Source: Erythroxylum novogranatense
Taxonomy: Eukaryota > Streptophyta > Magnoliopsida > Malpighiales > Erythroxylaceae
NCBI GenBank assembly: GCA_029891385.1
Contig: CM057226.1
Span: 89,784,977-89,848,976, forward strand
Direction: 5' to 3'
DNA length: 64,000 nucleotides
Positions 8,621 to 49,678 of the stretch are shown in pieces. Position numbers and translations under genes: made by a program. The first letter of the stretch is position 1; every line of letters begins with the position of its first letter. The notes under the pieces were generated by a model. The model did not search any database. It was not told the origin of the DNA and saw only the letters and a program-made list of their open reading frames with translations.

Positions 8621-9477
8621 TGTTGGACTTCGTTTCTGGAGCCCAACAATCGATTCGGATACCAAAAGATATTTGACCTAGTTCTTGAGACTAATTTCGA
8701 GAAGACCATTCGGGACAGAGCGAGAGGGTGGTGTGAAAGAAAAGTGAAAAATATTACATTTATTAAAAAAAATCTCAGCGTAGCCACGACGAACCCATGG
8801 AGTTATCTCCATAGACCATTCAGGAAAAGTTCGCTGCAGCATAAGTCATTCTTCACCACGGCAAAACCCTTAGAAATCAAAATCCACAAACATTTTAAAC
8901 AATCCAACTCACCCACCAAACAAACATATTCATACACAAATGGAATTTCAATTCTGCATTTCCTTACTAATTCAAAGAGTTTGAGCAAATACATATCATC
9001 ATACACATCAAAACTTAAACAAAATACATAAGGATGCTCAATGTTGAGATGTTTATAAGGCTAACCAAAATCACTAACTTAGTACAAAAGTCTCTAACTT
9101 TCTTGGAGTTTCTGATGCCTTACAAGGATCAACGATCTTCTCGGTCTACACGTGAGGAGTGGAAGGTAATGGGGTGAGCTGCAGAGCTCAGTGGCTTATA
9201 TATTTATAGCCATTGGCAACGAGCCACACATTCAAACATACAAACATATATATGTAACAATTTAACACTCCACAATTTAAACTCATAGTTACCAAGATCT
9301 CATCACAAAGAACATGTCATGTAATTTATTCATCATCACATAACACTCCATTATGCATCATGCTTAACAAAACAATGATGAAATGCACAAAAAATGGCTC
9401 GAGAGTTCTGTGGAACAAAACGGATAAACCGAAATTTATACTGTGAACAAAATGAGTCCAATTTCTCAGGATCTCAT
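8621..9477 (-). repeat. Gyp-C LTR, U5-side part (split by Nona-D)
   Basis: The minus-strand LTR end is ...GTCCAACA at 8621. It contains a GC dyad block (about 8775-8870) and a GAGCTGCAGAGCTC dyad (9174-9187). The LTR resumes at 18075. Joined across the insertion, the sequence aligns with the reverse complement of Tek-2 LTR around 20870-20945, including the CTCCCGGC box and the GTGCACGTGAC motif. Total LTR is about 2.4 kb. Confidence 0.78.
9473..9477. repeat. TSD CTCAT (left) of Nona-D
   Basis: Repeated at 18070-18074, flush with the other terminus. Confidence 0.85.
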
Positions 9478-9876
9478 TGTTGGACCCCGATTTTGAGTGA
9501 AATTTAGAAATATTAAGTGAAATTAAAGTAGTGGTTTTATATATGTATTGTGAAATAGATGTATTTATGCTTTGAGGAAAATTCATGAGAAAAGAATTAT
9601 TGGGTTTTGATAATTTTGATTATTGTGGAGATTTGTATAGTTTATGAAAGTTCAAGTGGATGAGTTGGTTGAAACAAAGTTGAAAAGCATAAATTAAATA
9701 GAAAAAGTTTGCAAAATTGAAATTTCATTTCTTCATATGATTTGTAGCCCCATGTCTTAATTTTATTTTGCCTCAAGAATCAATTCAATCGGATCTCCAC
9801 AGATCCCGAATTTCGCAAAAGACTGAACCATGTTCAGAAAATTATCTAACTCACTTTTATTAAATTAATTCAAGTA
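9478..9876 (+). repeat. Nona-D short-LTR fragment, U3 side
   Basis: Matches the reverse complement of about 10510-10889. It breaks at about 9876 and continues as internal sequence on the other strand. Confidence 0.85.
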
Positions 9877-10124
9877 TTCCTCAATTTCATCTCATAATTG
9901 CATATTCAAAACCAATTCATCCCAATTCATCAAGAACTTTAAATCTCAATTTCATTTTCACAAGCCTAAAATCAATCATCATTTCTAACCTTAATCAACC
10001 AATCACTTTACTCTTCACATAAGTCATGGAAATACTTTTCCATGTTCAGCAAATTCTCACAAATTCAATCTTAACAAACATATAGCCCAATTAAGATCCT
10101 AATACTGGGCTCTGATATCATAAA
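9877..10124 (-). other. Nona-D internal fragment with primer site
   Basis: Matches 11141-11394. The primer site, at 10110-10121 on the minus strand, reads TGATATCAGAGC, one mismatch from consensus. No coding. Confidence 0.8.
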
Positions 10125-10889
10125 TGTTGGGACTCGATCTCAGAACCGAATCCCAACCAAAAAATGAAACGAAAACGAAAAGACGGTAACGAAAACATAC
10201 GAATAATCCAATACCAAAAGCGGAAACAAAAGTGAAAGAGAAAACGAATACAAATTGATGGAAACGAAAGCAAAAATAGTGGATCAAAGCGAAAGGCGAA
10301 ATGAACTAAACGAATAATCGAATGGGAATCAAACAAACAATGTAAACAAATGAAAGCAAATCGAATACGAATTACCGACATCCGAAAACATATCCCTTAG
10401 AAAAACTATCTTAGAAAGTGATCGCGTTGCATTCCTTGGACTATTATCTACATTCTCAGGAAAAAATTTGTATTTTTATGAGATTAAATTGAGGATGATT
10501 AATTTAATCAAAGTTAGTTAGATAATTTTCTGAACATGGTTCAGTCTTGTGCAAAATTCAGGATTTATGGAGATCCGATTGACTTGATTCTTGAGGCAAA
10601 ATAAACTTAAGACATGGGGCTACAAATCATATGAAGAAATGAAATTTCAATTTTGCACACTTTTTCTATTTAATTTATACTTTTCAACTTTATTTCAATC
10701 AACTCATCCACTTGAACTTTCATAAACTATACAAATCTCCACAATAATCAAAATTATCAAAACCCAATAATTCTTTTCTCATGAGTTTTCCTCAAAGCAT
10801 AAATAAATTTATTTCACAATACATATATAAAACTATTCATTTAATTTCACTTAATATTTCTAAATTTTACTCAAAATCGGGGTCCAACA
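10125..10889 (-). repeat. Nona-D complete short LTR (765 bp)
   Basis: The minus strand starts TGTTGGACCCC and ends ...GAGTCCCAACA. It consists of the first ~240 bp of the long LTR, a ~230-bp block that is inverted relative to the long LTR, and the last ~305 bp. The ~3 kb between, including the promoter, is missing. Confidence 0.8.
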
Positions 10890-11394
10890 TTTCTCCCCCT
10901 TTTAAAAGAATTTCGTCCTCGAAATTCTAAATTAAGAAAATCTCCAAGTACTTACTTCTTAATGACCATAATCATTCACTTTTCACTTCCTAAATCTTAT
11001 ATCTCCAATATCATATACAAATTACTATATCCACAAAACAATATTCCTTAAGTTATGGACACCAATCAATGGTCCAATACAATTTAATCCAACCCCTTTT
11101 TGAACTTCCACACATATATCCTTATCATTTTCGTATCTTTCAAGTATTCCTCAATTTCATCTCATAATTGCATATTCAAAACCAATTCATCCCAATTAAT
11201 CGTAAACTTCAAATCTCAATTTCATTTTCACATGCCTAAAATCAATCATCATTTCTAACCTTAATCAACCAATCACTTTACTCTTCACATAAGTCATGGA
11301 AATACTTTTCCATGTTCAGCAAATTCTCACAAATTCAATCTTAACAAACATATAGCCCAAGTAAGATCCTAATACTGGGCTCTGATACCATAAA
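10890..11394 (-). other. Nona-D internal region with PPT and PBS
   Basis: Reading leftward, this 505-bp stretch has the primer site TGGTATCAGAGC at 11391-11380, non-coding sequence with no long frame, the pol-tail relic (TTCGAGGACGAAATTC) and the polypurine tract AAAAGGGGGAGAA at 10903-10891, directly against the 3' LTR. Compared with the ~4.9-kb internal region of Tek-2, everything coding has been lost while the replication signals are kept. Confidence 0.85.
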
Positions 11395-11697
11395 TATTGG
11401 GACCCGATCTTGGAACCGGATCCCAACCGAAGAATGAAACGAAAATGAAAAGGCGATAACGAAAACATACGGATAATCCAATACCAAAAGTGGAAACAAA
11501 AGTGAAAACGAAAACGAATACAAATTGATGGAAACAAAAGAAAAATAGTGGATCAAAGCGAAAGGCAAAACGAACTAAGCGAATAATCGAATCGGAACCA
11601 AACAAACGGTGCAAACTAATGAAAGCGAATCGAATACGAAGTTCCGACATCCGAAAACATACACTTTAGAAAAACTATATTAGAAAGCGATCACGTT
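11395..11697 (-). repeat. Nona-D LTR end, minus orientation
   Basis: Reverse-complement match to 14955-15278, the end of the plus-strand long LTR. It stops at the CGTTGGA/TTCC junction at 11697. Confidence 0.8.
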
Positions 11698-14600
11698 GGA
11701 TTCCTTGGGCTTTTATCTACATTATCAGGAAAAAAATTGTATTTTTATGAGATTAAATTGAGGATAATTAATTTAATCAAAGTGAGTTAGATAATTTTCT
11801 GAACATAGTTCAGTTTTTTGTGAAATTCGGGATCTGTGGAGATCCAATTGACTTGATTCTTGAGGTAAAATAAAATTAAGACATGGGGCTACAAATCATA
11901 TGAAGAAATGAAATTTCAATTTTGCCCCTAGGACTTTCAATTTCTGAATTGAATTTCAGATTAGTGTGCAGTCTTGGATTAGGAACATCTGAAAGTATTT
12001 TGGCCATAACGTTTGTTTTAGTAATCCAAATGAGGTGATTCTTGATTTTGAGTAACCTAGAGAAATAGGCTACAATTGTTATGAAGAAATTGAATTTCAA
12101 TTTTGGCTTTAAGAATGTCAATTTTTTAATGGAAATAACTTATTAGAAAATGTTTTAGCTTAAGACATGTCTGAAATGTTTTGAGCATAACTTTTGATAT
12201 AGTGCTCAAAATTGGATGATTTTTGTGGCATTATGAAATTAAGACAATAAGGAACAATTCTATAGAAGGACATTTTGGAAAATTCCTTCAATTTAATAGT
12301 GAGAAAAATGTCCTAAAATAAGCATGAATTAGAATCAAGTTCAAGGGCATTTGTGGCACATCACTTAAGGATTTAAGACTTTAGGCTTAAGTGGAAGGGC
12401 AATTTGGTCTTTTAGCTCTCATCAAATGACATGGCACTATATAAAGCTCATGACTGTCGTTTAAGGGAGGAGACTCACGACTATTGCCTAAAGATTTGAA
12501 AGAAATAAGAGAGAGGAGAAGAGAAGCATTCGGCCATAGAGGAGAAGCAAAGTTTCGAATTTTTAGGAGACTTCAAACATGATTTCAAGTTGATTCTAAA
12601 GGAAAAAGATGGAAAAGGAGAAAATCTTTTCATGGAGCTTTGAAAATTTGAAATTTGGAGGAAAAATGAGGTAAGAGAAAAGTTTAAGTTTTGAGTTTTT
12701 CTTGAAATTTTGGTTTAAAATAATGGAAAATGATATGGGTTTGTGTATTATGAAGTCAATTTTGATGATTGCTAAGTATTATGGGTTTAATTTTAGTTGG
12801 AAATGAATTAGGGTTATGCCCAATTTTGTGAATTGGGGATTTTGGAAATTTGTGATTTAGATGGCTTGATTATAAGTGGAATTAGTGTTTTCTAAGTTCA
12901 ATTTGAGGATTTTGTCATTTATGAAGTTGAATTTGGGTTAATTTGATTTAGGAAAATTTCAATTGGAAGAAAGAAAGAAGCAATGGTCAAATTGATGCTA
13001 GGGACAAGCTTCTAGCATTGATTCGAGGTGGGTAACATGTTTATTTTTCGAATTATAAGTTGATTATAATTTTTCAAAAATTAAAGAAGTGAAATTTCAA
13101 ATTATTGCTTATATTTTCGAAAAATAAAGAAAGAGGATTTTGATTTGAGTTGTTTCCGAATGTTTTGGAAAAATTGGACAAGTTTTTGAGAAAATAAGGA
13201 ATTTTCTGAAATTATGGAAATTGTTATAAAAGTTAGAATTATTGTTTAAAATGTTTTCGAGAAATTGTTAAAAAATTCTGAATTTCTTTATGCTTGAAGA
13301 ATTTTATTATTTATGAATTGATACTTTTTGTTACATATATGTGAATTATAAAAAGTGTTGCATTTTGTGTTTATGAATGGTTGTGATTTGATTACGATTT
13401 TGTTTATTATGTGATTGATTGAGGATTTGTACTTTGCATTTTAAATTGCTATAAGAAATCATGTGATTATGAATACGTCATGTATGACACAATGTGAAAA
13501 ATGAGATTTTTTTTAAAATCTGCCTTCGGGCAATTCGATTTTCGAGTATGATTATGTGATTTGTGAGTTTGGTTAGGTCCCTTAAGCTAGAGTCAGTGCA
13601 CTGGTCTCGTTTTTAGTAGCTTTCTCCCGGCTGCCCAATAGTGGCACTAGAGCTCTGATTTTAAACTCCTATAAGTCACGGCTATACTGGACCGCTATGT
13701 GGGAACGTGTAGTATGTTCCGTTCAAGGCTACACAGGACCGCTATGCGGGAATGTGCAGTATGTTTCATTTTGGACCGACCCAAACCATTTTGATATGTT
13801 ATTTATTTTTGGTTTGTGTATTTCTTGATTCATTGCATGTTTTGAATTTGATTATGAAATGTGAAAATTTGAAAAATTTTAGAACAGCGAAAGTGAGCAT
13901 TAAATGATGAAAATTTTTAATTTGATTATGATGGTTTGATTTTGAAGAATTGAAAAGGTTGAAAATGAGCTTTTGAATTTTTCGACTGAGAAATGTTTAA
14001 ACTGTTAAACGCCTTGAAAAATGTTTTTGCTTATTATTCGTTTTATAAACATATTATCCACGAGCTTTGTGCTCACCCTCCTCTTTCATCCCCATCTCTA
14101 GGTTTTGAGTAGGAGATCGGATGGAAGAATGTCAAGATGTGTTGTTCGATTTAGTATCGTTTGTATTTTGTATAAATTGGGATTTTTGTATCAGTTTGTA
14201 TAAGGCTTGATTTGCCCATTTATGTATGACAAGCACACATTTCAGGATGTATGTGATTTATGAAATTTGTGTATATAGTGAATATGGTGTATATGAATTC
14301 TGGAATGGTGTATTTCATTGAATTATGGATATGATTGGTGTTTGTATATAACTGTGATCGATTTTTGGGTTTGGATTGAATGGGGAATTAGAATATGGAA
14401 TTGAGATATTGAATGTGATTTGGGATTAAATGATGAATTTGTATATTGACTTAAGAAATGAATATGAATTGAATTTGGATAATGTGTTTTGGATATGGAT
14501 AAATTTGATTGATTGGAACTTATTGAAGTTTTTTAGAAATAGGATTGAGTTTGTTTATGCTGAGTTTATGGATGGGGGGTCTGAGAAATTTGATGATTGT

Positions 14601-15278
14601 GTGATTGAACTGGTTTATTGAAGTGAATTTTAAACCTTTTGCAGGTTTGGGTTAGTTAAAATGCAGCTGTTATGTTGTCGAATTTTTGATTCAATTAGAG
14701 ATAGAATAAAATAAGAATTGATTAAAAGATGAATTTTGGATTTGTATGAATGGATAAGAAGATGATTAAGGATTGAGACTTTACTTGTATAAGAAGTTTG
14801 TTACGCTTTGAGAAATTGATTGAGGATAATTTCTAAGAAAAGGGAAATTATATGGATTTGCATGAATTTGAATAAAGATGGTTATAAGAAAAGGAAAAAA
14901 AATTACACCGGTTTGATTCGTTTCGGATAGGTTTAGTCTAGGTTTCCAACACGATAGTTTCTAAGATATTTGTTCCTGGATGTCGGACATTTGTTTCGTT
15001 CAAATTGATCCGTTTGTTTGATTCGGTTCGATCAGCTTTGTTATTCAATTTTGCTTATGTTTTTGCCTTACGTATCCGTTTCGCATCCTTTCGATTTTGT
15101 TTTTTGCAATTTGAATCCGATTTTTCTTTTTGTTTCGCTTCATGATTCAATACTTTTGCTTTGTTATTCCGCTTTCGTTTCGTTTCGATTCATTGCTTTC
15201 GCATCTGTTTTGCATTCGTCCGCTTGTTTTCGTTTCGCTTCCCGGTTGGGGCCCAGATTGGAGATCGAGTCCTAACAG
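11698..15278 (+). repeat. Nona-D long LTR, plus orientation
   Basis: This carries a central block, a promoter region with a TATA box (12438-12445), a GGTGGGTAACATG box (13027-13039), a CTCCCGGCTGCCC box (13624-13636) and the LTR end ...GAGTCCTAACA, 4 nt before a primer site. The U3-side ~1.5 kb seen in the other long copy is replaced by the inverted LTR end at 11395-11697. An open frame at 15018-15275 is only a GC-skewed LTR tail. Confidence 0.75.
12438..12445 (+). promoter_or_regulatory. TATA box of the plus-strand Nona-D LTR
   Basis: TATATAAA in CATGGCACTATATAAAGC, followed by a purine-rich leader (12460-12700). The same promoter lies inverted at 15985-15992. Confidence 0.65.
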
Positions 15279-15782
15279 TTATGGTATCAGAGCCCAGTAT
15301 TAGGATCTTACTTGGGCTATATGTTTGTTAAGATTGAATTTGTGAGAATTTGCTGAACATGGAAAAGTATTTCCATGACTTATGTGAAGAGTAAAGTGAT
15401 TGGTTGATTAAGGTTAGAAATGATGATTGATTTTAGGCTTGTGAAAATGAAAATGAGATTTAAAGTTCTTGATGAATTGGGATGAATTGGTTTTGAATAT
15501 ACAATTATGAGATGAAATTGAGGAATACTTGAAAGATACGAAAATGATAAGGATATATGTGTGGAAGTTCAAAAAGGGGTTGGATTAAATTGTATTGGAC
15601 CATTGATTGGTGTCCATAACTTAAGGAATATTGTTTTGTGGATATATTAATTTGTATATGATATTGGAGATATAAGATTTAGGAAGTGAAAAGTGAATGA
15701 TTATGGTCATTAAGAAGCAAGTACTTGGAGATTTGCTTAAGTTAGAATTTCGATGACGAAATTCTTTTAAGAGGGGGAAAAT
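15279..15782 (+). other. Nona-D internal region, plus orientation
   Basis: Primer site TGGTATCAGAGC at 15283-15294, then about 470 bp non-coding, then the pol-tail relic (AGAATTTCGATGACGAAATTC) and the polypurine tract TTTTAAGAGGGGGAAAA near 15765-15781. Nearly the reverse complement of 10890-11394. The U3 expected after the polypurine tract is replaced at 15783 by an inverted, internally started LTR. Confidence 0.85.
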
Positions 15783-18069
15783 TTTTCAAAGATCCATGGA
15801 AAGCTTTCCTCCTTTTCCTTCTTTTTTCCTTTAGAATCAACTTGAAATCATGTTTGAAGTCTCCCAAAAATTCAAAACTTTGCTTCTCCTCTATGGCCGA
15901 ATGCTTCTCTTCTCTTCTCTCTTATTTCTTTCAAATCTTTAGGCAATAGCCGTGAGTCTCCTCCCTTAAACAACAGCCATGAGCTTTATATAGTGCCATG
16001 TCATTTAATGAGGGGTAAAAGACCAAATTTCCCTTCCACTTAAGCCTAAAGTCTTAAATCCTTAAGTGATGTTCCACAAATGCCCTTGAACTTGATTCTA
16101 ATTCATGCTTACTTTAGGACATTTTTATCACTATCAAATTGAAGGAATTTGCCAAAACGTCCTTCTAGACAATTGTTCCTTATTGTCTTAATTTCATAAT
16201 GGCACAAAAATCATCCAATTTGGAGCAATATACCAAAAGTTATGCTCAAAATATTTCAGACATATCTTAAGCTAAAACATTTTCTAGTACGTTATTTCCA
16301 TTCAATAATTGACATTCTTAAAGCCACAATTGAAATTCGATTTCTTCATAACAATTGTAGCCCTATTTCTCTAGTTTAATCCAAATAAATATCATCTCAT
16401 TTGTATTACTAGAACAAAAGTTATGGCCAAAATACTTTCAGATGTTCCTAATCCAAGACTGCACACTAATCCGAAATTCAATTCAGAAATTGAAAGTCTT
16501 AGGGGCAAAATTGAATTTTCATTTCTTCATATGATTTGTAGCCCCATGTCTTAATTTTATTTTGCCTCAATAATCAAGTCAATCGAATCTCCACAGGTCC
16601 CGAATTTCGCAAAAGATTGAACCATATTCAGAAAATTATCTAACTCACTTTGATTAAATTAATCATCCTCAATTTAATCTCATAAAAATACAAATTTTTT
16701 CTGAGAATGTAGATAATTGTCTTAGGAATCCAAAACTTCCAAAACCAAGTCAATCGGATGTCAAACAAAAAATTTATAAGCAAAAGAGTGAGAGGAGGAC
16801 ATTCAGAGATTAGGAATGGGCACGTCTAAGAAACTTAGAGACTAGGCGTAGCCACGCCTAAAGATGAAATCTGGATCTGTAGGAAAATTTCAGAATTTCC
16901 AAATCATATCTTTTGCTCCCGAACTCTAAAATTAACAAATTTGGTATCAATAGAAAGCTTAAATGAATTTTTACAACTTCCATGTAGAACTCCACAACTA
17001 ATTCAGTCTCTAATGTGGCCAAATTTCTAATCAAAGATCCTGTCCAAATGAATATGCCCTAAGTTATAACTCAAATTTGAAAAATTCTATCTTTCAATTC
17101 CAAAGTCCAAACATATCATATTTTATATCAATGCAAAGATTAGAAAGTCACCTACAACTTTCATGAAGGACAGAAAAATCAATTTGACCTTTAAGGAAGT
17201 CAATTTTCCCATCAAAAATTCTGTCATCTAATAATCATGCTAAAACAATAACAGAAATTTGTAAAAATCATAACTTCTTATTCCATGATCGAAAAATTCT
17301 ATACTTTATATCAAAATAAAGATCAAATCAAAATCTTCAACTTTCATGAAGAACTTAAAGACTAAAACAACCTCTAACTAGGTCAATTTTCCTGTCAAAG
17401 CTTCAGCCATAACATAGGTCAACCTATAACACACCTAAACTTTTAAATTTTATAATTTTCAATTCTCACATCCACTAATTGCATATTATACATCATTTTA
17501 AAGCTTGAAAACTCTTTTATGATTTTCATGAAGACCACTTTACTCAATTCAGACCACATCAATCCGACGATTTGCCTCAAAGTACAGCATACACAATTCC
17601 ACTCTTCATAGCATTTTTCAAACAATAAACTAACCCTAACTTTGACTGATCAAAACTTTTACTCCCGATATCGAAAAATATCAAACTTTATGGCGACAGA
17701 AAGCTTTCAACAGGAGTTACAAGTTTCTTGAAAATCATTTTCTCAAATTGTGCCTATATCAAAAAGTCAACTCTCTATGGCCAAAAGTCAAACTTTCTAT
17801 ATCCAAAAGTCAACTTTCTTAAATCTTCAAATTTGCACACTTTTTCTATTTAATTTATGCTTTTCAACTTTATTTCAATCAACTCATCCACTTGAATTTT
17901 CATAAACTATACAAATCTCCATAATAATCAAAATTATCAAAACCCAATAATTATTTTCTCATGAATTTTCCTCAAAGCATAAATACATCTATTTCACAAT
18001 ATATATATAAAATCACTCATTTAATTTTACTTAATATTTTTAAATTTCACTCAAAATCGGGGTCCAACA
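15783..18069 (-). repeat. Nona-D long LTR, minus orientation, U5 side missing
   Basis: It starts (minus strand) at 18069 with TGTTGGACC and runs through U3, including a dyad at 16843-16860 (TAGGCGTAGCCACGCCTA) and ACTTTCATGAAG modules about every 180 bp, then through the promoter (15992-15985) into the leader, where it stops. Bases 15785-16700 are an inverted copy of about 11700-12650. Confidence 0.82.
15985..15992 (-). promoter_or_regulatory. TATA box of the minus-strand Nona-D LTR
   Basis: TATATAAA on the minus strand, in the same context as 12438-12445. Transcription from it would run leftward into Nona-D, converging on the plus promoter. Confidence 0.6.
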
Positions 18070-18074
18070 CTCAT
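18070..18074. repeat. TSD CTCAT (right) of Nona-D
   Basis: Partner of 9473-9477. Confidence 0.85.
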
Positions 18075-19674
18075 GTCCTCAAGCAGGAAGCCGGGAGAAG
18101 GCTATATGTCGATGTGCACGTGACTAACGAAACGTTCCTCTCTCACTCAAACACAATCAAATTTCAATGTTTAACTCATTTCGTACACATTCATACTTTT
18201 CATGCTCATCATGCTTTTTCTCTATTTACTTATACAAGGTGCCATGACATATTTCAAGGCATAAAATGATCACAATCACAATGCATTTTCATAATTTTCA
18301 TAATTCAAATAAAGCAATTTAACAAATAACATACAAGCAAGCAAGACAGTTTTCTTATATTACACAACAACTATAAATATATTACCCACCTAATTTCGCT
18401 TGACAATCTAATTCAGTGTTGTCTTTCCTCTTGCTCTTGGATTGGGCTTGCTTGGTTTCCTATAACAAACTAAGTTCTAATTCAAACAACATTCAAAGGA
18501 AATTCGTAAAGCTTCAATAATAAGAAATGCTAAAATTGACTATAATCATTTCAAAACCTGGACTCTCGGGTCAATTTTTCATGATCATTATGATCAGGTA
18601 AATGAAGAAATTTGGTTACACTTCCTTCTAGAAAAAATGTTCTTCATTATCTTAAGTTTCCAATGACACCAAATCATTCAATTTGGTTCAGTAATCCAAA
18701 ATTTATACTCTAAACATTTTCAGAGTGTTCTTATACTTAGACAATATTCTATACTCAACTTCCTTCCAAAAATTTATATCCTTAGAGAATGAATTTAAAC
18801 TTAATTTCTTCATACAACTTGTAGCCCTATGTCTCTAGTTTACTCTAAATTAAAAATCGCTCCATTTAAATAACTATAGAAAGGGTTATACTCAAAATAC
18901 TGAAGCATATTCAGTGCTGAAAGTTCGTTGCGATGAACTTTTCTAGAAAGGAAAAATTTGCCCGAAATAAGGAGTTCGCCGCGATGAACTTCACCCTTCA
19001 AGTTGGCCGCAATGAACTTTGATAGAGGCAACGCAGACATGTTTCATTTTTCAGATTTTCCTCCCACCTTTCACATATAATCCATCTTAAACCTGAACCA
19101 TCCCTTCTAAATCATTTTCAACTCCATTTCAACCACAAAATCATTCACAAATACATCATAATCTATCTTTGATCATTAACCCTAAAATATTAAAACATTT
19201 TCATATACCATTCATCAATAACTTCCTACACCCATTCAACTTCATTTTCACTTCTAACTATCACTAAACATGGTTCATCTAACAATCAAGAAGGGTTAAT
19301 GTTTATACTTACTTGTTTTAGCCTCAAAGTCTTCAAGATCTCCAAACCCTAGCTTCCTTCTTTCTTTTCTTCTTCTTTTCTCTTCTTTTCCCTCTTCCAT
19401 GACACTTCCCTTCTTTTTTTCTAATCTAAGACTACATTTTATTCTAATCTTCCAATTTTGCCCTTCATGTAGTTGTTCTTTCCAAAAATGACCCTCCTTC
19501 ATTTAATCCAAAGTCTACTTACCTTAGGCCATTTATCTAATACCTTAATCATACACTAATTTAATTTTAACTTTGGAATAATAATTAAATCCAAATAAAA
19601 TCGTTTATCTAGCAAGACCACCAAATTTATTCAAATCATGCTTAATAAATAAATAAATAATTCGGGGTCTAACA
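18075..19674 (-). repeat. Gyp-C LTR, U3-side part
   Basis: The minus strand starts TGTTAGACCCCGAATTA next to a polypurine tract. It holds three dyad-like copies of GTTCGCCGCGATGAACTT (18923, 18974, 19002) and a conserved ATCACTCCATTT...AACTA module. It continues at 9477 on the far side of Nona-D. Confidence 0.8.
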
Positions 19675-19693
19675 TTTCTCCCCCTCTTAAAAG
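19675..19693 (-). other. Gyp-C polypurine tract
   Basis: The minus strand reads TCTTTTAAGAGGGGGAGAAA, the plus-strand primer of reverse transcription, flush with the LTR start. Confidence 0.8.
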
Positions 19694-19828
19694 AATTTTG
19701 TCTTCGAAATTCTTACCTGATTCGTTGAAGAGGTGTGGATACTTATCCTTCATGGCTTCCAATGGCTCCTATGTTGCTTCCTCGTTTGCATGGTTCTTCC
19801 ACAAAACTTTAACTAATTTCACAGTCTT
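19694..19828 (-). pseudogene. Gyp-C pol C-terminus (chromodomain-like tail)
   Basis: Minus-strand translation gives [19 protein letters not shown], a stop, EPLEAMKDKYPHLF, then GKNFEDKILLRGGE. The tryptophan expected after EEAT is a stop codon. Tek-2 has [18 protein letters not shown] in the same place. In chromoviruses this C-terminal module helps direct integration to particular chromatin. The rest of pol was displaced to the right by Tek-1 and lies beyond the window. Confidence 0.82.
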
Positions 19829-19840: not shown

Positions 19841-22800
19841 TGTTGGGCCCCGAATTTTTATTTATTTATTTATTTGAATTATTTATTTATTTATTTATGG
19901 ATTTATTCGTTAATTATTTATTTTTCCTTAATTGATTTAATTATGTGTTTATATAAATATTTTTATGTTGGGCTTGGGATTAGAAGTTAGAAATTAATTT
20001 AAGGCTTGGATTTAATATTGGAAAGTATTGGCTTTAGGAATGAATGAGTAAGAAGAGGGGAGCCCAAAAGCCTTGTAAGTTAGAAGAGGGAGAGCCCAAT
20101 ACCAAAACTATGTAGTTTTGGAAGGAGGTTTTAAGTGAAAGCAAATAAATGAGTGAAAGGAATTAAAGAGGAGAAGAGGAGTAAGCAAGTGTCGTAGAAC
20201 AAAAGGAGAAGAGAAGGAAAAACGTGAGCTAGCAAGGGAGAAAGAAGAGGACCTTCGGCTAAGTGGAAGAGAGTCGTAGGGAAGAAGAAAGAAGGAGAAA
20301 AAGAAGAGAAACCAAGTGAGAAAGGTAAGCTTTCATCTTTTCTTAAGTTAGATTTGAAAATGGTGTATGATGAAAGTTAGGGTTTATGTAGAGATTGAAG
20401 AAAAATGGAAGAGAAGGTGAGATCTATGGATGTTAAGGAAGGTTATGGTTATTCTAGCTTAAATGAGCCATGGGTAGGTTAGGTTAAGGTTAATTTTAGT
20501 TTTCCTTTAATTTATGAATATTATGACCTTTCCTATGAATTTAGAAATTGATTGGAGATGTGTTTTGTTTAAAGGAACTCAAGAAAACCCTACTCAAGAC
20601 AAAGAGGAAGGGCAATCTTGACTTCTGATTTCGACGATAGGTGGGTAACATGTTTATAGTTGTTGTGTAGTGGGCAAATGCCTATGTGTGCTATCTTTGT
20701 TATATTATGAGCATATTGAAAGTGTATTCATATGATTTGAAAGAAAAGAATGGAACTTTGATGATTCGAAAGTATGAAAGAAGCATAAAATGCTACTTTT
20801 ACGTATGAATATGTGAACATAGTTTGTTTGTGTTTGGGCGAGAGAGAACCTCTATCGTAAAGTCACGTGCACGTTGACCCCTTTTTGCCTTCTCCCGGCA
20901 GCCCGCTTGTGGCCCACGAGATCCGAAAAATGGACTCGTCGTGTTTACGGTAAACTTCGGTTTTAATCGTGTTTAAGGAACTCTCGAAGCCTATTGGGTG
21001 CATTTCATCCTTTGATTATGTATATGATGCATAATATGTGTTTTAATTGATAAAAGATGTTTCCTTATGTTTTATGTAAGAAGTTCGATTAATTGTGATC
21101 TTGGTGATGAAGTTGGATATTATGACTTATATGTTGATTTCTAATGCTCTGGAATACTATCGTGTTATGTGTGGCTCATTACTCCTTGTTAGCCACTGAG
21201 CCGTGTTAGCTCATCCCATTCTCCCTCCTCAGGTGAAAATCCAAGTTGAGAGACGAACCTTGCAAAGGCATCGGGCATAACTCCAAGAAATTTTAGAAAC
21301 TTTGTATTAAGTTAGTAACTAGCTCTTGAAATGGCTTTGTAAGCATATTGACCATTGAGCATCTCATCTTTTGTATTTTGCACTTGTTCTTGATGATTAT
21401 GCCATTTTGTAACTTGAAGCTATGCATGAATCATTATGCTTGGAAGGGAACTTGAGTGCTTCAGTACACTCTTTTCATGTGTTGGTATTGATTTTTGTAG
21501 TTTGTGTATGGTATGGGAAAATGTGTGTATGATTCTTCTTTTGTTGAGTTACTGTTGATGTTGTGCTTTGGGAGAGCTCCTGGAATATTTGCTATGGTCT
21601 ATGTGTTGTTGAAGTTGAGAAGAGTACTGCAGAAAGGATGGGCTGAAGTGTTCATGTGGGAAATTTTGGGGTTGTTGTGTTTTCTGCAGATTTCTGGGTT
21701 AATACGAGTAGTATGGGATCATTTAGTATTGTTGAGAGTGTTAGCCGGTCTGTAGAGCTCTCCCAGGGGGGTTTATGAGTTATTTAAGATAAGTTAATGG
21801 GTTGGTGTAAGTCGTTGGAATTAAATGTAGGTGCTGTCAAAGTGACAGATTGGTAGCATAAGCTTTGAGTCCACTTTTTACCCATATAGAGTTGGAATAT
21901 AGGTCGGTGGTTTTCATGAAAGTTGTAGATAATTCTGTTACCTTTCCATAGACACTAAGTTTGCTAAATTTGGAGTTCTGGGTCAAAAGTTATGGAGGTC
22001 ACAAGTTCTGGTACTGTTTGTGGAGAGCTAGCCGACCTGTCTTAGTGGGAACTTTTGATTCCCTTAGAGTCCGAGCTTGCTTGTGAGCCCTTCTCAAAAA
22101 ATATATATTTTTCTCCTAGCTTTCCAACGCTTCTGACCGTGTCTAATTTGGAGCTCGGAGTCAAAAGTTATGAGGGTTAGAAGTCGGTTAGGTCGGGCGG
22201 TGAGGCGGTCGCCCAGCGCGTGGTGCGGCGCCGCGCTCACCCATGCCGGGCTTATGGCGGCGTCGCGCTCGCCCATGCCGGGTGAGTGCCCGCTCGCCTA
22301 TCTGGGCGAAGGCTCAGCCTTCGCATCGCGTGAGGCGCCAAGAGCCCAGTGGCCGGGCTCTTGCAGCAATTGGGGTCGATCTCGGCCGACCGAACCCTCC
22401 TCCTTCTTTTGGTCATAACTTTTGCACAGACCTCCGATTGAGCTGATTTTCGGAGCGATGGATTCCTAAGAAAATTTTATATCTTTATACACCTGATTTA
22501 TCACTATTTATTTTAAATTGAAAAAGGTGGTTTGAAACAAAGTGTGGAGATCAGCTGATTCTTTCTGAATATACTTCACTAATTTTTAAATATCTGGAGC
22601 TATAGGGCTCGGATTGAGGCGATTCTTGTTTTAAATGAAACTAGAGTTATAAAACTACAAGTTTTATGAAGGAGACGATCAGTAATTCAGCCTCTAAAGA
22701 TTTCAAATTTTGACATGAAGTCGGTAGAGGGACTGTTTTCACTGTTTTCTTTAAGATTGTATTTTTGCCATAACTTTTTCATTTCTAATCTGAACTGAAC

Positions 22801-23004
22801 GATTTCAGTGGTGTTAGAATTGTGAGATCATGAGGAACAATTTTCTTAAAAAAGCAAACCCCAAATTCTTTCTATTAAAAGTTTCTCTATTTGTGTTCGG
22901 TTTGGGTCTTCCATGCTTATATGTGTCCGAGTGAGTCATGGGTCTTCTATGCGTATGTGTGCTTGTGTGTTCCGAATGTTGGGCCTCGGAGATGGGGTCC
23001 AACA
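19841..23004 (+). repeat. Tek-2 5' LTR
   Basis: Opens with a TTTA-rich tract (19855-19925). A purine-rich segment (20100-20340) suggests the leader. The CTCCCGGCAGCCC box is at 20892-20904, the GTGGCTCATTACTCC and GTTAGCTCATCCC motifs at 21170-21220, and a GC-rich block at 22190-22375 that is about 110 bp longer than in the 3' LTR. Confidence 0.92.
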
Positions 23005-23009
23005 TTGTT

Positions 23010-23021
23010 TGGTATCAGAGC
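23010..23021 (+). other. Tek-2 primer-binding site
   Basis: TGGTATCAGAGC, 5 nt after the LTR end; pairs with initiator tRNA-Met. Confidence 0.92.
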
Positions 23022-23181
23022 TTAGGTTTCACTCCTAGGCTTTTGTTGGGATATAGGATTAAATGTTTGTATTATGAATTGATGGTTTGCATTAAGTGAC
23101 ATGCATTTCATACATACATATAGGAACTAAGATTAAAAAGAAATATAGCTAATCGGTAAATGTTTTCATTGAAGGAGTAAG

Positions 23182-24363
23182 ATGCCACCTCGTAGAAGGA
23201 CACGAGGAGTTCTGCAAGGTTCTATTGCACCTGACTCTCCACAGAGAGAGGAGAGCATGGATGAGTCCGTAGCCCCGGGAGTGGCCGCAGTTGAGGCTTC
23301 TCTAGGGGCGAGTAGAGAGCCCTTCGATCTCGAGACTCAGCGATCGCTTAGTCGATCTGAGCAAGTGCTCGCTCTAGACCGAGACTCTTCAGGCATTTAC
23401 CCAAGCATTCGTTCAGCTATGGGTCAAATGCCCTGTGCTTCAGTTGACCCAGTAAGAGGGGAGACAGTTTGACAAGTCGAGGAAGTATGGGCGGTGGATT
23501 TCCACGGACCACGGATCTGAGGAAGCCGAGACATGGTTGAGGAAGACGAGAGGGTCTTGGATCAGATGGAGTGCGAGGATGATGAGAGGGTGGTTTATGC
23601 TGCCAGTCTGCTCCAGGGTGATGCCTTGCATTGGTGGGAGACTGTGCCAGGAAGTCAGACGAGGCCAGTAGGATTGACTTGGGGAGACTTCCTGACTGTG
23701 TACAGGAAGAAGTATCTGTCTGAAGTGTACATTCAGCAGAAGCAGAGGGAGTTTCTGAGTCTCGCCCAGAGGGAGATGACTGTTGCTGAGTATGAGCGTC
23801 GGTTTACTCAGTTGTCGAGGTATGCTTCGGAGCTGATGTTTAGTGAGGCTGCCAAGTGCCGCAGGTTTGAGTCGGGCCTACATTTAGCTATCAGAGAGAA
23901 GGTAGTGGTGCAGAATTTTTCTGATTTCCAGCAGCTGGTTGAAGCGGCTCTGAGGTTGGAGAACATTGAAAACATTAAGAGTGCAGTTAGCAGAAAGAGG
24001 AAAGGAAGAGAGCAGTTCAGGAGGGGAGGTGGTACTTCTATGCCTGAGAGAAGTGCCAGAACCTTTCCTGGGCAGTCTGAGGAGAGGAGTACCGGTGGGA
24101 GCCGGCCTAGATCGATGAGGATTCCTACTGTTTCTCACCAAGCTTCAACGGTGGGCGGCAGTAGAAGAGGTGACGGGGAGAGACCACCTCCTCCTAAATG
24201 TGAGCATTGTGGGTATCTCCATAAAGGAGAATGTCGCAGATTGTCAGGAGCATGCTTCAATTGTGGGCAGAAAGGGCACATAGCAAATTTTGTCCTAAGC
24301 GGACGTAAGAGAGGGACACAGATGCAAGCTTCGGAAGGACGAGGCGATGGGATAGAAAATTGA
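23182..24363 (+). pseudogene. Tek-2 gag (frameshifted)
   Basis: The start ATG at 23182 follows a 160-bp leader and opens MPPRRRTRGV, the usual basic start of Tekay gag. This frame stops at 23472, and the gag core resumes in another frame at 23533. There, residues 1-145 hold the Retrotrans_gag fold (ALHWWETVPG, TWGDFLTVYRKKY, RRFESGLH), followed by a basic linker and a zinc-binding part: CEHC at 223-226, then C241, C244 and H249, with V254 where the last Cys of CX2CX4HX4C belongs. A single-base loss near 24287 explains the lost Cys and the shift into pol. Gag would build the particle and bind genomic RNA. At least two frameshifts make it non-functional as read. Confidence 0.88.
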
Positions 24364-26054
24364 TGACAGTAGGTAGCTCTGGTGTACCTAAGAGAGCTTA
24401 TCCTCCAGACAGATCCAGGGGGCAAGCACCAGCTAGAGTGTTTGCTATGACTCGAGAGGAGGCAGAGACAGCTCCGGAAGTGGTAACGGGTATGATTAAA
24501 TTGTTTGATGATTGTGTGCTTGCTTTGATTGATCTGGGTTCTACCCATTCCTTTGTGTCGTCGGGTAGAACTGTATGTGGTAGAGTCTTGAGCCCATTGG
24601 ATACTCCGCTGATGGTGAGTACTCCGATCGGCCAGTTTATTATTATCAGTCAAGTGTATAAAGACTGTGAGATAGAGATTAGTGGAGGGAAGTTTGTGAT
24701 GGATTTGATGCCTTTGAAGATGGGAGGATTGGATGTGATCCTAGGTATGGATACTTTAGAGAAGTATAATGCCAACTTAGACTGCAAGCAAAAGACAGTG
24801 GAATTCGAGTCAGAGAATGGCAGAAAAGTGGTATTTGTGGGAGATAGAAGAGCCAGTCCACCTCGGATTGTTTCAGCTATGTCAGCAGAAAGATTGATGA
24901 GTAAGGGGTGTGAAGTGTATTTGGCCTATGTGTTAGACACGGAGGCAGATAGAGGGAGGTTGGAGGATATTCCTGTAGTCAGGGAATTTCCGGACGTCTT
25001 TCCCGAGGAATTGCCAGGACTACCTCCTCCGAGGGAAATTGAGTTTCCCGTTGAGCTTCTTTCAGGTACTACGCCGATTTTGATTCCGCCTTACCGGATG
25101 GCTCCGGCGGAATTTAGGGAGCTTAAGGAGCAATTGGAGGATCTTTTAGAGAAGGGCTACATTAGGCCGAGCTCTTCGCCTTGGGGAGCTCCGGTGCTAT
25201 TTGTGAAGAAGAAGGATGGGTCGTTGCAGATGTGTGTGGATTATAGGAAGTTGAATCATGCCACCATTAAGAACAGATATCCGCTCCCGCGTATAGATGA
25301 TTTGTTTGATCAGTTGCAAGGGGCGAGAGTCTTTTCCAAGATAGATTTGAGATCGGGTTATCATCAGTTGAGGATTAAGGAGACTGATGTGTCCATGACT
25401 GCTTTTAAGACGCGGTATAACCACTTTGAGTTTTTGGTTATGCCTTTCGGGTTAACAAATGCTCCTGCAGTCTTTATAGATTTAATGAATAGAGTTTTCA
25501 AGTCTTTCCTAGACCAATTTGTCATTGTTTTTATTGATGACATATTGGTCTATTCTAAGAGTGATGAGGAGCACGAGGATCACTTGGGAGTTGCTTTAGA
25601 GACCTTGAGAAAGAACGAGTTGTATGCCAAGTTCGACAAGTGCGAATTTTGGCTAAGAGAAGTAGTATTTCTAGGGCATGTAATTTCAGAGCGTGGAGTG
25701 CATGTGGATCCACAAAAGATAGAAGCTGTGGTTAAATGGGAAGCACCTAAGAATGTGGCTGAGGTGAGGAGTTTCTTGGGACTAGCTGGATATTACTGGG
25801 AGGTTCGTGGAGGGCTTTTCTTTGATAGTTGCTCCACTTTCCAAATTGACGAGAAAGAATCGAAGTTTGAGTGGGTGAGGAATGCGAGTAGTTTTGAGGA
25901 ATTAAAGAATAGGCTTATTCTCGCACCGATTTTAACATTACCTATGGTGATGATGGATATATTGTGTCTGATGGACTTCCGGAAGGGTTTAGGATGTGTA
26001 TTGATGCAAGGAGAAAGTGATTGCTTATGCTTCCAGGCAATTGAAGCCTTATGA
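24360..26054 (+). pseudogene. Tek-2 pol, first part: protease and reverse transcriptase
   Basis: A 564-residue frame. The protease has DLG at 58-60 (family D-[ST]-G) in [11 protein letters not shown] and LDVILGMD at 124-131. RT runs from YRMAP (245) through [17 protein letters not shown] (283-299), [12 protein letters not shown] (308-319), [11 protein letters not shown] (326-336), MPFGLTNAP (361-369) and the catalytic FIDD (391-394) to FLGLAGYYW (472-480). After that the reading departs from the family: residues about 480-505 are out of frame, and a further shift ends the frame near RNase H. The RT catalytic residues are intact, but the protease motif is altered. Transcribed together with gag; overlaps its end by 4 nt. 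Confidence 0.9.
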
Positions 26055-27993
26055 GATGAACTATCCTATACATGACCTGGAATTGGCTGCTATAATTTTC
26101 GCCTTGAAGATTTGGAGACACTACTTGTATGGAGTTACTACTAGAGTATTTACGGATCATAAGAGCCTTAAGTACTTGTTGACTCAGAAAGAGCTGAATT
26201 TGAGGCAGAGGCGATGGTTGGAGTTATTAAAAGATTATAATTTGGTGATAGACTACCATCCGGGGAAAGCTAATGTTGTAGCTGATGCATTGAGTAGGAA
26301 GTCCACTATGGCACATGTGGAGACAGTGTACCTTCCCTTACTGAAGGAATTAGCCAGACTTGATGTGACATTGAGGCAAGTTGAGCCTGACTGTATTTTG
26401 GTGAATTTCAGAGTGAGACCGGTGTTGAGGGGGAAGATCAAAGAATTGCAGGAATGGAATGAGTACTTGAGTAAGCTTAGAGCAGAGATAAAAGATGGTA
26501 AGCCCTCTGTTGTAGAGGTAAAGGAAGATGGATTGATGGTTGTGGGTGATAGATTGTGTGTTCCAGATGTGGTAGAGCTGAAGGATGAGATCCTTGATGA
26601 AGCACATAACGCTCCTTATGCAATGCACCCAGGGAGTTCTAAGATGTATCGGGATTTGAAAGAACATTTCTGGTGGAAGGGAATGAGAAAAGATGTGGCA
26701 GAGTACGCTAGAAGATGTTTAGTGTGTCAGCAAGTTAAAGCTGAACACCAAGCACCTTCAGACAAGCTTAATCCTTTGCCGATTCCGGAATGGAAATGGG
26801 AGAAGATTACCATGGACTTTTTGATGGGATTGCCGAGGACTAGCAGGAAGCATGATGCTATTTGGGTGATTGTGGATAGGCTGACTAAGTCAGCCCATTT
26901 CTTGCCAATTAAACAGACGGATTCTTTGAATGTTTTGGCTAAGAAGTATGTAGATGAGGTAATCAGACTTCATGGGATTCCGAGTTCGATAATGTCTGAT
27001 AGGGATCCTAGGTTTACCTCTAGGTTTTGGGAAAGCTTACAGGAGGCTTTGGGGACTAGATTGCATTTCAGTACAGCTTTCCATCCACAGACTGATGGAC
27101 AGTCGGAGAGGACGATACGGACTTTGGAGGCTATGTTGAGAGCTTGTGCTTTGGATTTCAAAGGTTCGTGGGATGATCACTTACCTTTGATTGAGTTTGC
27201 TTACAATAATTCCTATCACTCGGGAATTCAGATGGCACCTTATGAGGCTTTGTATGATAGGAGATGCAAGACTCCTTTATGTTGGGATGAGGAAGGTGAG
27301 AGGAAGCTTGTAGGACCTGAGTTAGTGCAGGTTACTGTGGATAAGGTGAAGTTAGTGAAGCAGAGACTTAAAGCAGCTCAAGATAGGATGAAGAGCTACA
27401 CAGATGCCCATAGGAAAGAGATGGAGTTTGAAGTGGGTGAGAAGGTGTTTCTTAGAGCTTCTCCATGGAAAGGTGTTTTGAGGTTTGGCAAGAAGGGCAA
27501 GCTTAGCCCAAGGTATATAGGCCCATATGAGATCATTGAGAGGATCGGGCCTTTGGCTTATAAGATAGATTTGCCATTGGAGTTGTCTAAGTTTCACAAT
27601 GTGTTCCATGTATCGATGTTGAGGAGATATAGATCGAATCCTTCGCACATAGTTCAACCTTCAGAGGTTCAGTTAAGAGAGGATTTGACTTATGAGGAGC
27701 AGCCAGTGGAGATCTTAGATTCAAAGGAAAAAGTGTTAAGGAATAAGATTGTAAAACTGGTTAAGGTCTTGTGGAGGAATCATTCGACCGAGGAGGCTAC
27801 TTGGGAACCTTTGGAAGCCATGAAGGAGAAGTATCCGTACCTCTTCATGGATTCAGGTAAGGATTTCGAGGACGAAATTTTTTTAGGAGGGGAGAATTGT
27901 TGGGCCCCGAATTTTTTATTTATTTATTTATTTGAATTAATTATTTATTTATTTATGGATTTATTCGTTAATTATTTATTTTGCCTTAATTGA
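26017..27993 (+). pseudogene. Tek-2 pol, second part: RNase H, integrase, chromodomain
   Basis: A 658-residue frame continuing pol after a shift; its first Met is internal to RNase H, not a real start. RNase H has FTDHKSL (D47) and VVADALSRK (D90). Integrase has the zinc motif H197/H204 and C234/C237, then D267 (TMDF), D328 (SDRD) and E364, a DD35E layout, followed by the GPY/F region (RYIGPYEI, about 499-506). The tail [18 protein letters not shown] (581-598) is the chromodomain-like module of Tekay chromoviruses. The frame runs through the polypurine tract and stops inside the 3' LTR. The integrase looks catalytically complete. This part would join cDNA to chromosomal DNA. Confidence 0.92.
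27885..27897 (+). other. Tek-2 polypurine tract
   Basis: AGGAGGGGAGAAT directly before the 3' LTR start; it overlaps the [11 protein letters not shown] end of pol. Confidence 0.88.
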
Positions 27994-29217
27994 TTTAATT
28001 ATGTGTTTATATAAATATTTTTATGTTGGGCTTGGGATTAGAAGTTAGAAATTAATTTAAGGCTTGGATTTAATATTGGAAAGTATGGGCTTTAGGAATG
28101 AATGAGTAAGAAGAGGGGAGCCCAAAAGCCTTATAAGTTAGAAGAGGGAGAGCCCAATACCAAAACTATGTAGTTTTGGAAGGAGGTTTTAAGTGAAAGC
28201 AAATAAATGAGTGAATGGAATTAAAGAGGAGAAGAGGAGTAAGCAAGTGTCGTAGAACAAAAGGAGAAGAGAAGGAAAAACGTGAGCTAGCAAGGGAGAA
28301 AGAAGAGGACCTTCGGCTAAGTGGAAGAGAGTCGTAGGGAAGAAGAAAGAAGGAGAAAAAGAAGAGAAACCAAGTGAGAAAGGTAAGCTTTCATCTTTTC
28401 TTAAGTTAGATTCGAAAATGGTGTAGGATGAAAGTTAGGGTTTATGTAGAGATTGAAGAAAAATGGAAGAGAAGGTGAGATCTATGGATGTTAAGGAAGG
28501 TTATGGTTATTCTAGCTTAAATGAGCCATGGGTAGGTTAGGTTAAGGTTATTTTAGTTTTCCTTTAATTTATGAATATTATGACCTTTCCTATGAATTTA
28601 GAAATTGATTGGAGATGTGTTTTGTTTGAAGGAACTCAAGAAAACCCTATTCAAGACAAAGAGGAAGGGCAATCTTGACTTCGGATTTCGACGATAGGTG
28701 GGTAACATGTTTATAGTTGTTGTGTAGTGGGAAAATGCCTATGTGTGCTATCTTTGTTATATTATGAGCATATTGAAAGTGTATTCATATGATTTGAAAG
28801 AAAAGAATGGAACTTTGATGATTCGAAAGTATGAAAGAAGCATAAAATGCTACTTTTACGTATGAATATGTGAACATAGTTTGTTTGTGTTTGGGCGAGA
28901 AAGAACCTCTATCTTAAAGTCACGTGCACGTTGACCCCTTTTTGCCTTCTCCCGGCAGCCCGCTTGTGGCCCACGAGATCCGAAAAATGGACTCGTCGTG
29001 TTTACGGTAAACTTCGGTTTCCGTCGTGTTTAAGGAACTCTCAAGCCTATTGGGTGCATTTCATCCTTTGATTATGTATATGATGCATAATATGTGTTTT
29101 AATTGATAAAAGATGTTTCCTTATGTTTTATGTAAGAAGTTCGATTAATTGTGATCTTGGTGATGAAGTTGGATATTATGACTTATATGTTGATTTCTAA
29201 TGCTCTGGAATACTATC
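27898..29217 (+). repeat. Tek-2 3' LTR, left part
   Basis: Matches 19841-21163 with few differences, then is cut at CTATC by Cop-1. Confidence 0.92.
29213..29217. repeat. TSD CTATC (left) of Cop-1
   Basis: Partner at 49674-49678. The uninterrupted site is visible in the 5' LTR at 21159-21163. Confidence 0.9.
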
Positions 29218-49673: not shown

Positions 49674-49678
49674 CTATC
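49674..49678. repeat. TSD CTATC (right) of Cop-1
   Basis: Partner of 29213-29217. Confidence 0.9.

What the first reader, a model, noticed from the sequence alone, without database searches (positions are those of the whole stretch)
9473..18074. Element inserted with a perfect TSD but with U3 starts at both ends
Nona-D begins with TGTTGGACCCC at 9478 and ends with the reverse complement of the same U3 start at 18069. About 240 bp match at the two ends in opposite orientation. Both ends abut CTCAT, and the flanks rejoin into a continuous Gyp-C LTR that aligns to the reverse complement of Tek-2 LTR 20870-20945. A normal LTR element has one U3 and one U5 end. An inversion after insertion would have had to break exactly at the TSD. 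I infer integration of an already rearranged cDNA, such as a fold-back or template-switched dimer of a short-LTR and a long-LTR copy. I know of no named class like this.
Basis: partly seen in the sequence, partly recalled or inferred. Interest (0 to 1): 0.88.

Follow-up and report, generated by a model that had tools for sequence, protein, structure and literature searches.

The report
LTR retrotransposon with two U3 ends
A retrovirus-like jumping element sits in a plant-like genome as one clean insertion, but both of its ends are copies of the same 'front' end, most likely because its DNA copy was scrambled by strand-switching before it was inserted.

Summary
At 9478-18069 (8,592 bp) both ends are U3 starts, 248 bp alike at 94%, inverted. 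CTCAT flanks both sides and the flanks rejoin in related sequences. It belongs to an abundant non-autonomous Gypsy-like family (LTR about 4.7-4.8 kb, internal about 0.5 kb). Read on the minus strand it is LTR-internal-LTR: a 6,675-bp 5'LTR holding an inverted [LTR part + internal] segment, a 505-bp internal region, and a 765-bp 3'LTR that is the same LTR minus one 5.9-kb stretch. A 647-bp cap (PBS, half an internal region, fold-back to U3) replaces the expected U5 end. The 'short LTR' is thus not a separate element. Each of four joins was spanned only by the window's own copies among 40 scored hits; at least three show microhomology, and one lies at the PPT/U3 border. Pooled arms differ by 3-9%, LTR pairs of three other members by 5.1-6.1%, so the arms date from about the insertion. 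Best reading: strand-switching in reverse transcription made a cDNA with U3 at both ends, which integrase inserted. Main rival: an ordinary U3/U5 insertion whose U5 tip gained the cap during integration repair, by a switch within TGTTGG that leaves no trace. One clear case; frequency not measured.

The parts
9473..9477 (.). left target-site duplication CTCAT
9478..9725 (+). cap: U3 start ('a', 248 bp), left terminus of the element
   Evidence: 94.4% to rc 17821-18069; 93-96% to the genomic U3 starts among 40 scored hits
9711..9897 (-). cap: piece of b (b 229 to 49) in antisense; join J2 at 9711-9725
   Evidence: 2 of 40 scored hits span the join, both in the window
9869..10124 (-). cap: internal region 255 to 1 incl. 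PBS in antisense; join J3 at 9869-9897 within a 29-bp imperfect overlap
   Evidence: 1 of 40 scored hits (its own) spans J3
10125..10889 (-). 3'LTR, 765 bp, TGTTGG..CCAACA: a + rc(b 229-1) + c; equals the 5'LTR with a 5.9-kb stretch missing at J2
   Evidence: J1 at about 10427
10890..11394 (-). internal region 505 bp: PPT at 10890-10903, PBS TGGTATCAGAGCCC next to the U5 end at 11395
11395..18069 (-). 5'LTR variant V, 6,675 bp: a - mid - b949 | J4 | rc(internal - d - b) | J1 | c - U5 end
   Evidence: J1 spanned by 2 of 40 scored hits, both in the window
11395..11696 (-). U5 end 'c' of V
   Evidence: 89% to 10126-10427 and 13-19% different from the d end
11696..12649 (+). b (U3/R part), forward copy; TATAAA at 12440-12445
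12650..15277 (+). d (R/U5 part of an ordinary LTR), U5 end CCTAACA
   Evidence: main pieces 88-89% to L017, other pieces 76-85%; U5 end read
15278..15783 (+). second internal region: PBS 15282-15295 to PPT about 15769-15780
   Evidence: 97-98% to the other internal copies
15780..15785 (.). join J4: PPT/U3 border joined to antisense b949
   Evidence: 1 of 40 scored hits spans it (its own); 27 stop at or before 15785, 12 start at 15780-15783
15785..16733 (-). b in antisense (rc TATAAA 15985-15990)
   Evidence: 93% to 11697-12645
16734..17820 (-). mid part of U3
   Evidence: main pieces mostly 83-90% to ordinary family members
17821..18069 (-). U3 start 'a', right terminus
18070..18074 (.). right target-site duplication CTCAT

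Best explanation
A single integration event, with 5-bp TSD, of an aberrant cDNA of a non-autonomous Gypsy-like LTR element. Shown: the anatomy; the rejoining target site; four joins each spanned only by own copies among 40 scored hits, three with clear microhomology and J3 in a stretch of imperfect homology; J4 at the PPT/U3 border; repeated arms about as old as ordinary LTR pairs. Inferred: during reverse transcription a strand ending at the PPT/U3 border switched onto U3/R sequence of opposite sense (J4). A second switch from the U5 part (J1) put an inverted LTR+internal segment into the LTR. One LTR copy then lost 5.9 kb across that hairpin (J2). A plus strand that had run past the second LTR into PBS and internal sequence folded back onto a PPT-initiated plus strand (J3) and ran off at that strand's 5' end, which is exactly the U3 start. 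Both termini of the linear product are then U3 ends. The integrase accepted them because U3 start and inverted U5 end share TGTTGG and further partly matching bases.
For: TSD and a rejoining empty site in L025 and two window sequences. Ordinary member L017 has U3..U5 ends with TSD AGATT/AGATT; L012 has CCATC/CTATC, 4 of 5. Joins: J1 2 of 40 scored hits, both in the window; J2 2 of 40, both in the window; J3 1 of 40; J4 1 of 40. Microhomology: J1 TTGGA; J2 GCAAA plus TTGAA around one mismatch; J4 about 3-6 bases; J3 a 29-bp imperfect overlap. J1 is in both LTRs, which a reverse-transcription cycle explains most simply. Pooled arm divergence 3.0-8.9% against 5.1, 5.2 and 6.1% for three ordinary LTR pairs. 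U5 parts c and d differ by 13-19% plus 35-36 gap runs, internal copies by only 1.8-3.5%, which fits two co-packaged RNAs. Precedent for like ends: an RSV integrase paper assays concerted integration with donors bearing a single U3 end (PMC3579926, passages).
Against: Only one clear case. No cDNA intermediate was seen. Switch points and templates are inferred. Window copies are hardly closer to each other than to the nearest genomic copies, so parent RNAs cannot be told apart. J3 has only about 1 exact base in common at the break itself. A switch inside TGTTGG at the tip during or after integration would look identical. The 3'LTR/5'LTR divergence (8.9%, SE 1.0) is above the ordinary pairs, and single pieces range from 1.8% (internal) to 11.0% (c, rich in CG transitions). 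The genome search scores only the best 40 candidates, so rarity of the joins is likely, not proven.
Confidence: 0.52

Rival explanations
1. An ordinary-ended (U3 right, U5 left) but internally rearranged cDNA was integrated. While the 5-bp gap at the left junction was repaired, the host polymerase switched within TGTTGG to an inverted U3 copy, copied about 420 bp, switched again at J3 and rejoined at PBS/U5, leaving the 647-bp cap between TSD and U5 end.
For: U3 start and inverted U5 end share TGTTGG and more. An intact U5 end sits at 10125 just inside the cap. Cap divergence 29/618 = 4.7% fits an age near the insertion. The other joins also use short microhomology. C2:56134473-56138647 shows an internally inverted LTR with ordinary U3 and U5 ends in this family.
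Against: Needs a separate repair episode on top of the rearrangements that made V, and a switch within the first 6 bases. No base specific to U5 is left at the tip.
Confidence: 0.28
2. Later DNA rearrangement (inversion, gene conversion, replication template switching) of an old ordinary insertion.
For: Inverted segments inside an LTR with ordinary ends occur in the family.
Against: A break exactly at the element edge is needed. The arms are about as old as an ordinary insertion; a much later event would give nearly identical arms. J1 is in both LTRs.
Confidence: 0.13
3. Two nested or adjacent insertions of opposite orientation whose outer ends happen to look like one insertion.
For: Head-to-head U3 pairs of other origin exist: C184 (two right ends), C4, C6. 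In the C6 pair the flanking 5 bases even match (TTTCC/TTTCC).
Against: C184 and C4 flanks do not match (actac against cagtg and aggta; aaatc against tccag). For C6 the flanks do not rejoin: 0 of 40 scored hits span the joined site, and its two U3 arms differ by 43/232. Here the flanks do rejoin.
Confidence: 0.03
4. Assembly artefact.
For: Palindromic repeats are assembly-prone (recalled).
Against: Arms differ by 3-9% and a TSD with rejoining flanks frames the structure.
Confidence: 0.04

Closest known systems
Template-switching complex LTR retrotransposons (Sabot and Schulman 2007, PMC1950507)
   Different: Theirs are same-orientation complexes with a shared third LTR and ordinary outer LTRs. 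Here parts are inverted and both termini are U3.
LARD / TRIM non-autonomous LTR elements
   Same: No long ORF seen, PBS and PPT present, LTR-internal-LTR.
   Different: Family LTR about 4.7-4.8 kb with an internal region of only about 0.5 kb: long LTR like LARD, tiny interior like TRIM (size definitions recalled).
Foldback / long-TIR DNA transposons
   Same: Terminal inverted repeats and a TSD.
   Different: The repeats are LTR U3 ends next to PBS/PPT of a Gypsy-like family; no other copy of the joins appeared among the scored hits.
Ginger and TDD DNA transposons with Gypsy-like integrase (PMC2836005, start of abstract only)
   Same: A Gypsy-type integrase acting on two like inverted ends.
   Different: Those are cut-and-paste transposons; this is a rearranged product of an LTR family.
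Retroviral autointegration or inversion circles (recalled)
   Same: Inverted LTR segments in unintegrated DNA.
   Different: None of J1-J4 joins an LTR tip to an interior site, and the product was integrated.

Membership tests
LTR retrotransposon (non-autonomous, Gypsy-like) | LTRs beginning TG, ending CA | tested here: met
   TGTTGG..CCAACA at 10889/10125; same ends in L012 and L017
LTR retrotransposon (non-autonomous, Gypsy-like) | PBS and PPT next to LTRs | tested here: met
   TGGTATCAGAGCCC, and a purine tract next to U3; that the PBS fits initiator Met tRNA is recalled
LTR retrotransposon (non-autonomous, Gypsy-like) | 5-bp TSD | tested here: met
   CTCAT twice; one copy of the site (CTCGT) in related sequences
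LTR retrotransposon (non-autonomous, Gypsy-like) | one U3 and one U5 terminus | tested here: not met
   U3 at both termini
LTR retrotransposon (non-autonomous, Gypsy-like) | mobilised by a Gypsy integrase | not testable with these tools
   a nearby element has RT, RNase H, integrase zinc-binding and SH3 matches above cut-off; integrase core and chromodomain below cut-off; it shares the PPT region
Template-switching complex (Sabot and Schulman) | single TSD around a multi-domain element | tested here: met
Template-switching complex (Sabot and Schulman) | outer LTRs highly similar and in the same orientation | tested here: not met
   outer U3 ends similar (94%) but inverted
Foldback DNA transposon | a family of copies sharing the same structure | tested here: not met
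   J1-J4 spanned only by own copies among 40 scored hits each

The most novel reading that the evidence does not exclude
Plant Gypsy integrase can insert cDNAs with two U3 ends, and run-off of a strand-switched end on the PPT-initiated plus strand is a natural route to such ends. This would be an unrecognised class of like-ended LTR insertions with perfect TSDs that annotation tools built on direct LTR repeats would miss.
Probability: 0.4. Interest if true: 0.72.

Novelty: new variant of a known kind. Interest (0 to 1): 0.5.

Why it matters
If the two-U3 cDNA was integrated, it is genomic evidence that an integrase pairs two like ends in a plant, and it records strand-switching steps of reverse transcription that are otherwise transient. 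LTR finders that require direct repeats would miss such insertions. The element also carries two facing TATA-bearing b arms, so a transcript could fold into a long hairpin; whether it triggers silencing of its family, as the title of a paper on a transposon inverted duplication suggests (title seen in a reference list), is open.

Tried and rejected
Short-LTR element as an independent parent: rejected. The 765-bp LTR lacks the TATA part, shares J1 with the long LTR, and no other copy appeared among the scored hits.

Single origin of the copies from private shared sites: weak. Window copies are almost as far from each other as from the nearest genomic copies. States seen only in window copies and shared between them: aL+aI 2, bI+b2 4 (b1-215), b2+bR 3, intL+int2 1, int2b+intRb 2.

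Other U3/U3 insertions: 6,034 U3-start matches exist (22-mer, up to 2 mismatches), of which 100 were listed. A longer variant gave 33, all listed. By eye, in these 133 rows two places have head-to-head starts within 25 kb: this element, and C2:56135870/56138647. The second has a U5 left end with TCATA on both sides and an inverted segment inside, so it is not U3/U3. Two more pairs at 29-30 kb were not examined. In the six extended neighbourhoods, more diverged head-to-head pairs appeared: C184 (two right ends) and C4 have unlike flanks. C6 (L033:6261 to L024:9420) has TTTCC on both sides, but its left tip reads AGTTGG, its U3 arms differ by 43/232, another LTR element with no TSD found lies inside, the sequence preceding the site in the one related stretch held (L026) does not match (score 19, shuffled best 22, window/L025 control 128), and 0 of 40 scored hits span the joined flanks. 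I take it as chance, not as a second case. Frequency remains unmeasured.

Age of L028's LTR pair: the alignment was meaningless (40.7%) and was dropped; 3 of 4 pairs were kept. Source of U5 part c: that genome search did not complete. Rfam: no match at gathering score in 9400-18200. Papers: 10 answered searches listed nothing on two-U3 insertions by title or start of abstract; most listed papers were not opened. PMC1950507 was read whole; PMC3579926, PMC12312487 and PMC12112155 by passages, the last two of little relevance.
Full report
Observation. The element spans 9478-18069. Both termini read TGTTGGACCCCGATTTTGAG into the element, and 249 columns match at 94.4% in opposite orientation. CTCAT lies on both sides. 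Joined with one CTCAT, the flanks align across the site to L025 at 81.6% without a gap there, and to window 21035-20823 and 29091-28880 at 74% with a one-base gap beside it; all three carry a single CTCGT. L008 and L016/L036 align across it at about 69%. The insertion and its TSD are therefore real.

The family. The window lies at G000:C3:89784977-89848976 of a 1.3-Gb genome, which from its size and elements is a plant (inference). Of 40 scored hits to the U3 start, 3 are the window's own and the others are about 93-96% alike. Twenty neighbourhoods were fetched and annotated with pieces of the window element. L012, L014, L015, L017 and L028 show a whole LTR-internal-LTR-start order (in L014 with other sequence inserted); the other 15 were cut, nested or not resolved. 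Ordinary order is a - mid - b - d (LTR about 4.7-4.8 kb), PBS, about 500 bp, PPT, LTR. Three members were followed to the 3' end: L017 ends in U3 and U5 with TSD AGATT/AGATT, L012 has CCATC/CTATC, L028 was not resolved. The 7 ORFs of 80 codons or more that overlap the region are 80-113 codons, counted stop to stop. A nearby element (LTR-like direct repeats 19845-21161 and 27903-29217) has reverse transcriptase, protease, RNase H, integrase zinc-binding and SH3 matches above cut-off, and integrase-core and chromodomain matches below it. It shares the PPT region (19659-19713, 27860-27915), so its kind could supply the proteins (inference).

Anatomy. On the minus strand, in element sense, the order is: 5'LTR V 18069-11395, internal 11394-10890, 3'LTR 10889-10125, cap 10124-9478. 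V is a - mid - b949 | J4 | antisense internal - d - b | J1 | c - U5 end. The 3'LTR is a | J2 | antisense b 229-1 | J1 | c - U5 end, that is V without one 5.9-kb stretch. The cap continues from the U5 end into PBS and internal 1-255, then J3, b 49-229, and antisense a down to its first base, which abuts CTCAT. The two-U3 state rests on this cap.

Joins. J1 is spanned by 2 of 40 scored hits, both in the window. J2: 2 of 40, both in the window. J3: 1 of 40. J4: 1 of 40. The search scores only the best 40 candidates, so rarity is likely but not proven. J1 has TTGGA in common, J2 GCAAA and TTGAA around one mismatch, J4 about 3-6 bases. J3 lies in a 29-bp imperfect overlap with about one exact base at the break. 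At J4, 27 hits from the internal side stop at or before window 15785, which in L018 is a few bases into U3, and 12 hits from the b side start at 15780-15783. The break is thus at the PPT/U3 border.

Age. Pooled arms: cap against its sources 29/618 = 4.7%; 3'LTR against V 68/763 = 8.9%; b arms 65/946 = 6.9%; internal copies 15/503 = 3.0%. Single pieces range from 1.8% to 11.0%. LTR pairs of other members: L012 5.1%, L017 5.2%, L015 6.1% (two LTRs of a multi-LTR array, first 4 kb); L028 dropped. The arms are about as old as an insertion of this family. Given the errors, a cap added within roughly the first half of the element's life is not excluded. U5 parts c and d differ by 13-19% with many gaps, more than the arms, so U5 probably came from two sources.

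Mechanism. Shown: one integration, rearranged interior, microhomology at most joins, a break at the PPT/U3 border, arms dating to about insertion. Inferred: strand switches during reverse transcription, with both termini made by run-off at the 5' end of PPT-initiated plus strands. Integrase would accept the two U3 tips because U3 start and inverted U5 end are alike (TGTTGG shared). In vitro, RSV integrase is assayed for concerted integration with donors having a single U3 end (PMC3579926, passages). The serious rival is templated addition of the cap at an ordinary U5 tip during repair of the integration gap. It needs a switch within six shared bases and would leave the same sequence.

Controls. 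Other head-to-head U3 pairs were tested: C184 with two right ends and C4 have unlike flanks; C6 has TTTCC on both sides but strongly diverged arms (43/232) and flanks that rejoin in 0 of 40 scored hits. A palindromic LTR at C2:56134473-56138647 has an ordinary U5 left end and U3 right end with TCATA on both sides, and an inverted PPT-U3 segment inside. So an inverted segment inside an LTR is not unique to the window, but two U3 termini with rejoining flanks were seen only once. The genome holds 6,034 U3-start matches, of which 100 could be listed, so the frequency is open.

Novelty. The closest published case read is the template-switching complex of Sabot and Schulman (PMC1950507, whole text), which is same-orientation with ordinary ends. 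Ten paper searches listed nothing on two-U3 insertions; subscription papers are mostly outside that library.

Noticed in passing
L041/L040, G000:C2:56134473-56138647: LTR-only insertion of the same family with TCATA on both sides, U5 left and U3 right, containing an inverted PPT-U3-b segment that makes a 1.3-kb palindrome (89% arms).
   Followed up: partly
L033:6261 to L024:9420 (G000:C6): Head-to-head U3 pair of two subfamilies with TTTCC on both sides; flanks did not rejoin in 40 scored hits, arms differ 18.5%. Probably chance.
   Followed up: partly
G000:C2:34023070-34038993 (L015): Tandem LTR-internal array of this family: PPT-region hits at 34028338, 34033585 and 34038897, about 5.25-5.3 kb apart.
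   Followed up: no
G000:C1:54922311-54961516: Five PPT-region hits, four of them spaced about 12.0 kb apart: a larger tandem array.
   Followed up: no
window 19845-29217: Gypsy-like element with LTR-like direct repeats 97-100% alike; its pol domains lie in two overlapping ORFs.
   Followed up: partly
window 12440-12445 and 15985-15990: Two TATAAA boxes in the two b arms face each other; transcripts would be convergent and could form a long hairpin.
   Followed up: no
window 49011-51431: Stretches 95-96% alike to window 30507-31173, 21185-22220 and 22352-23004: another copy of the neighbouring LTR family, with a U5-type CCAACA tip at 51431.
   Followed up: no
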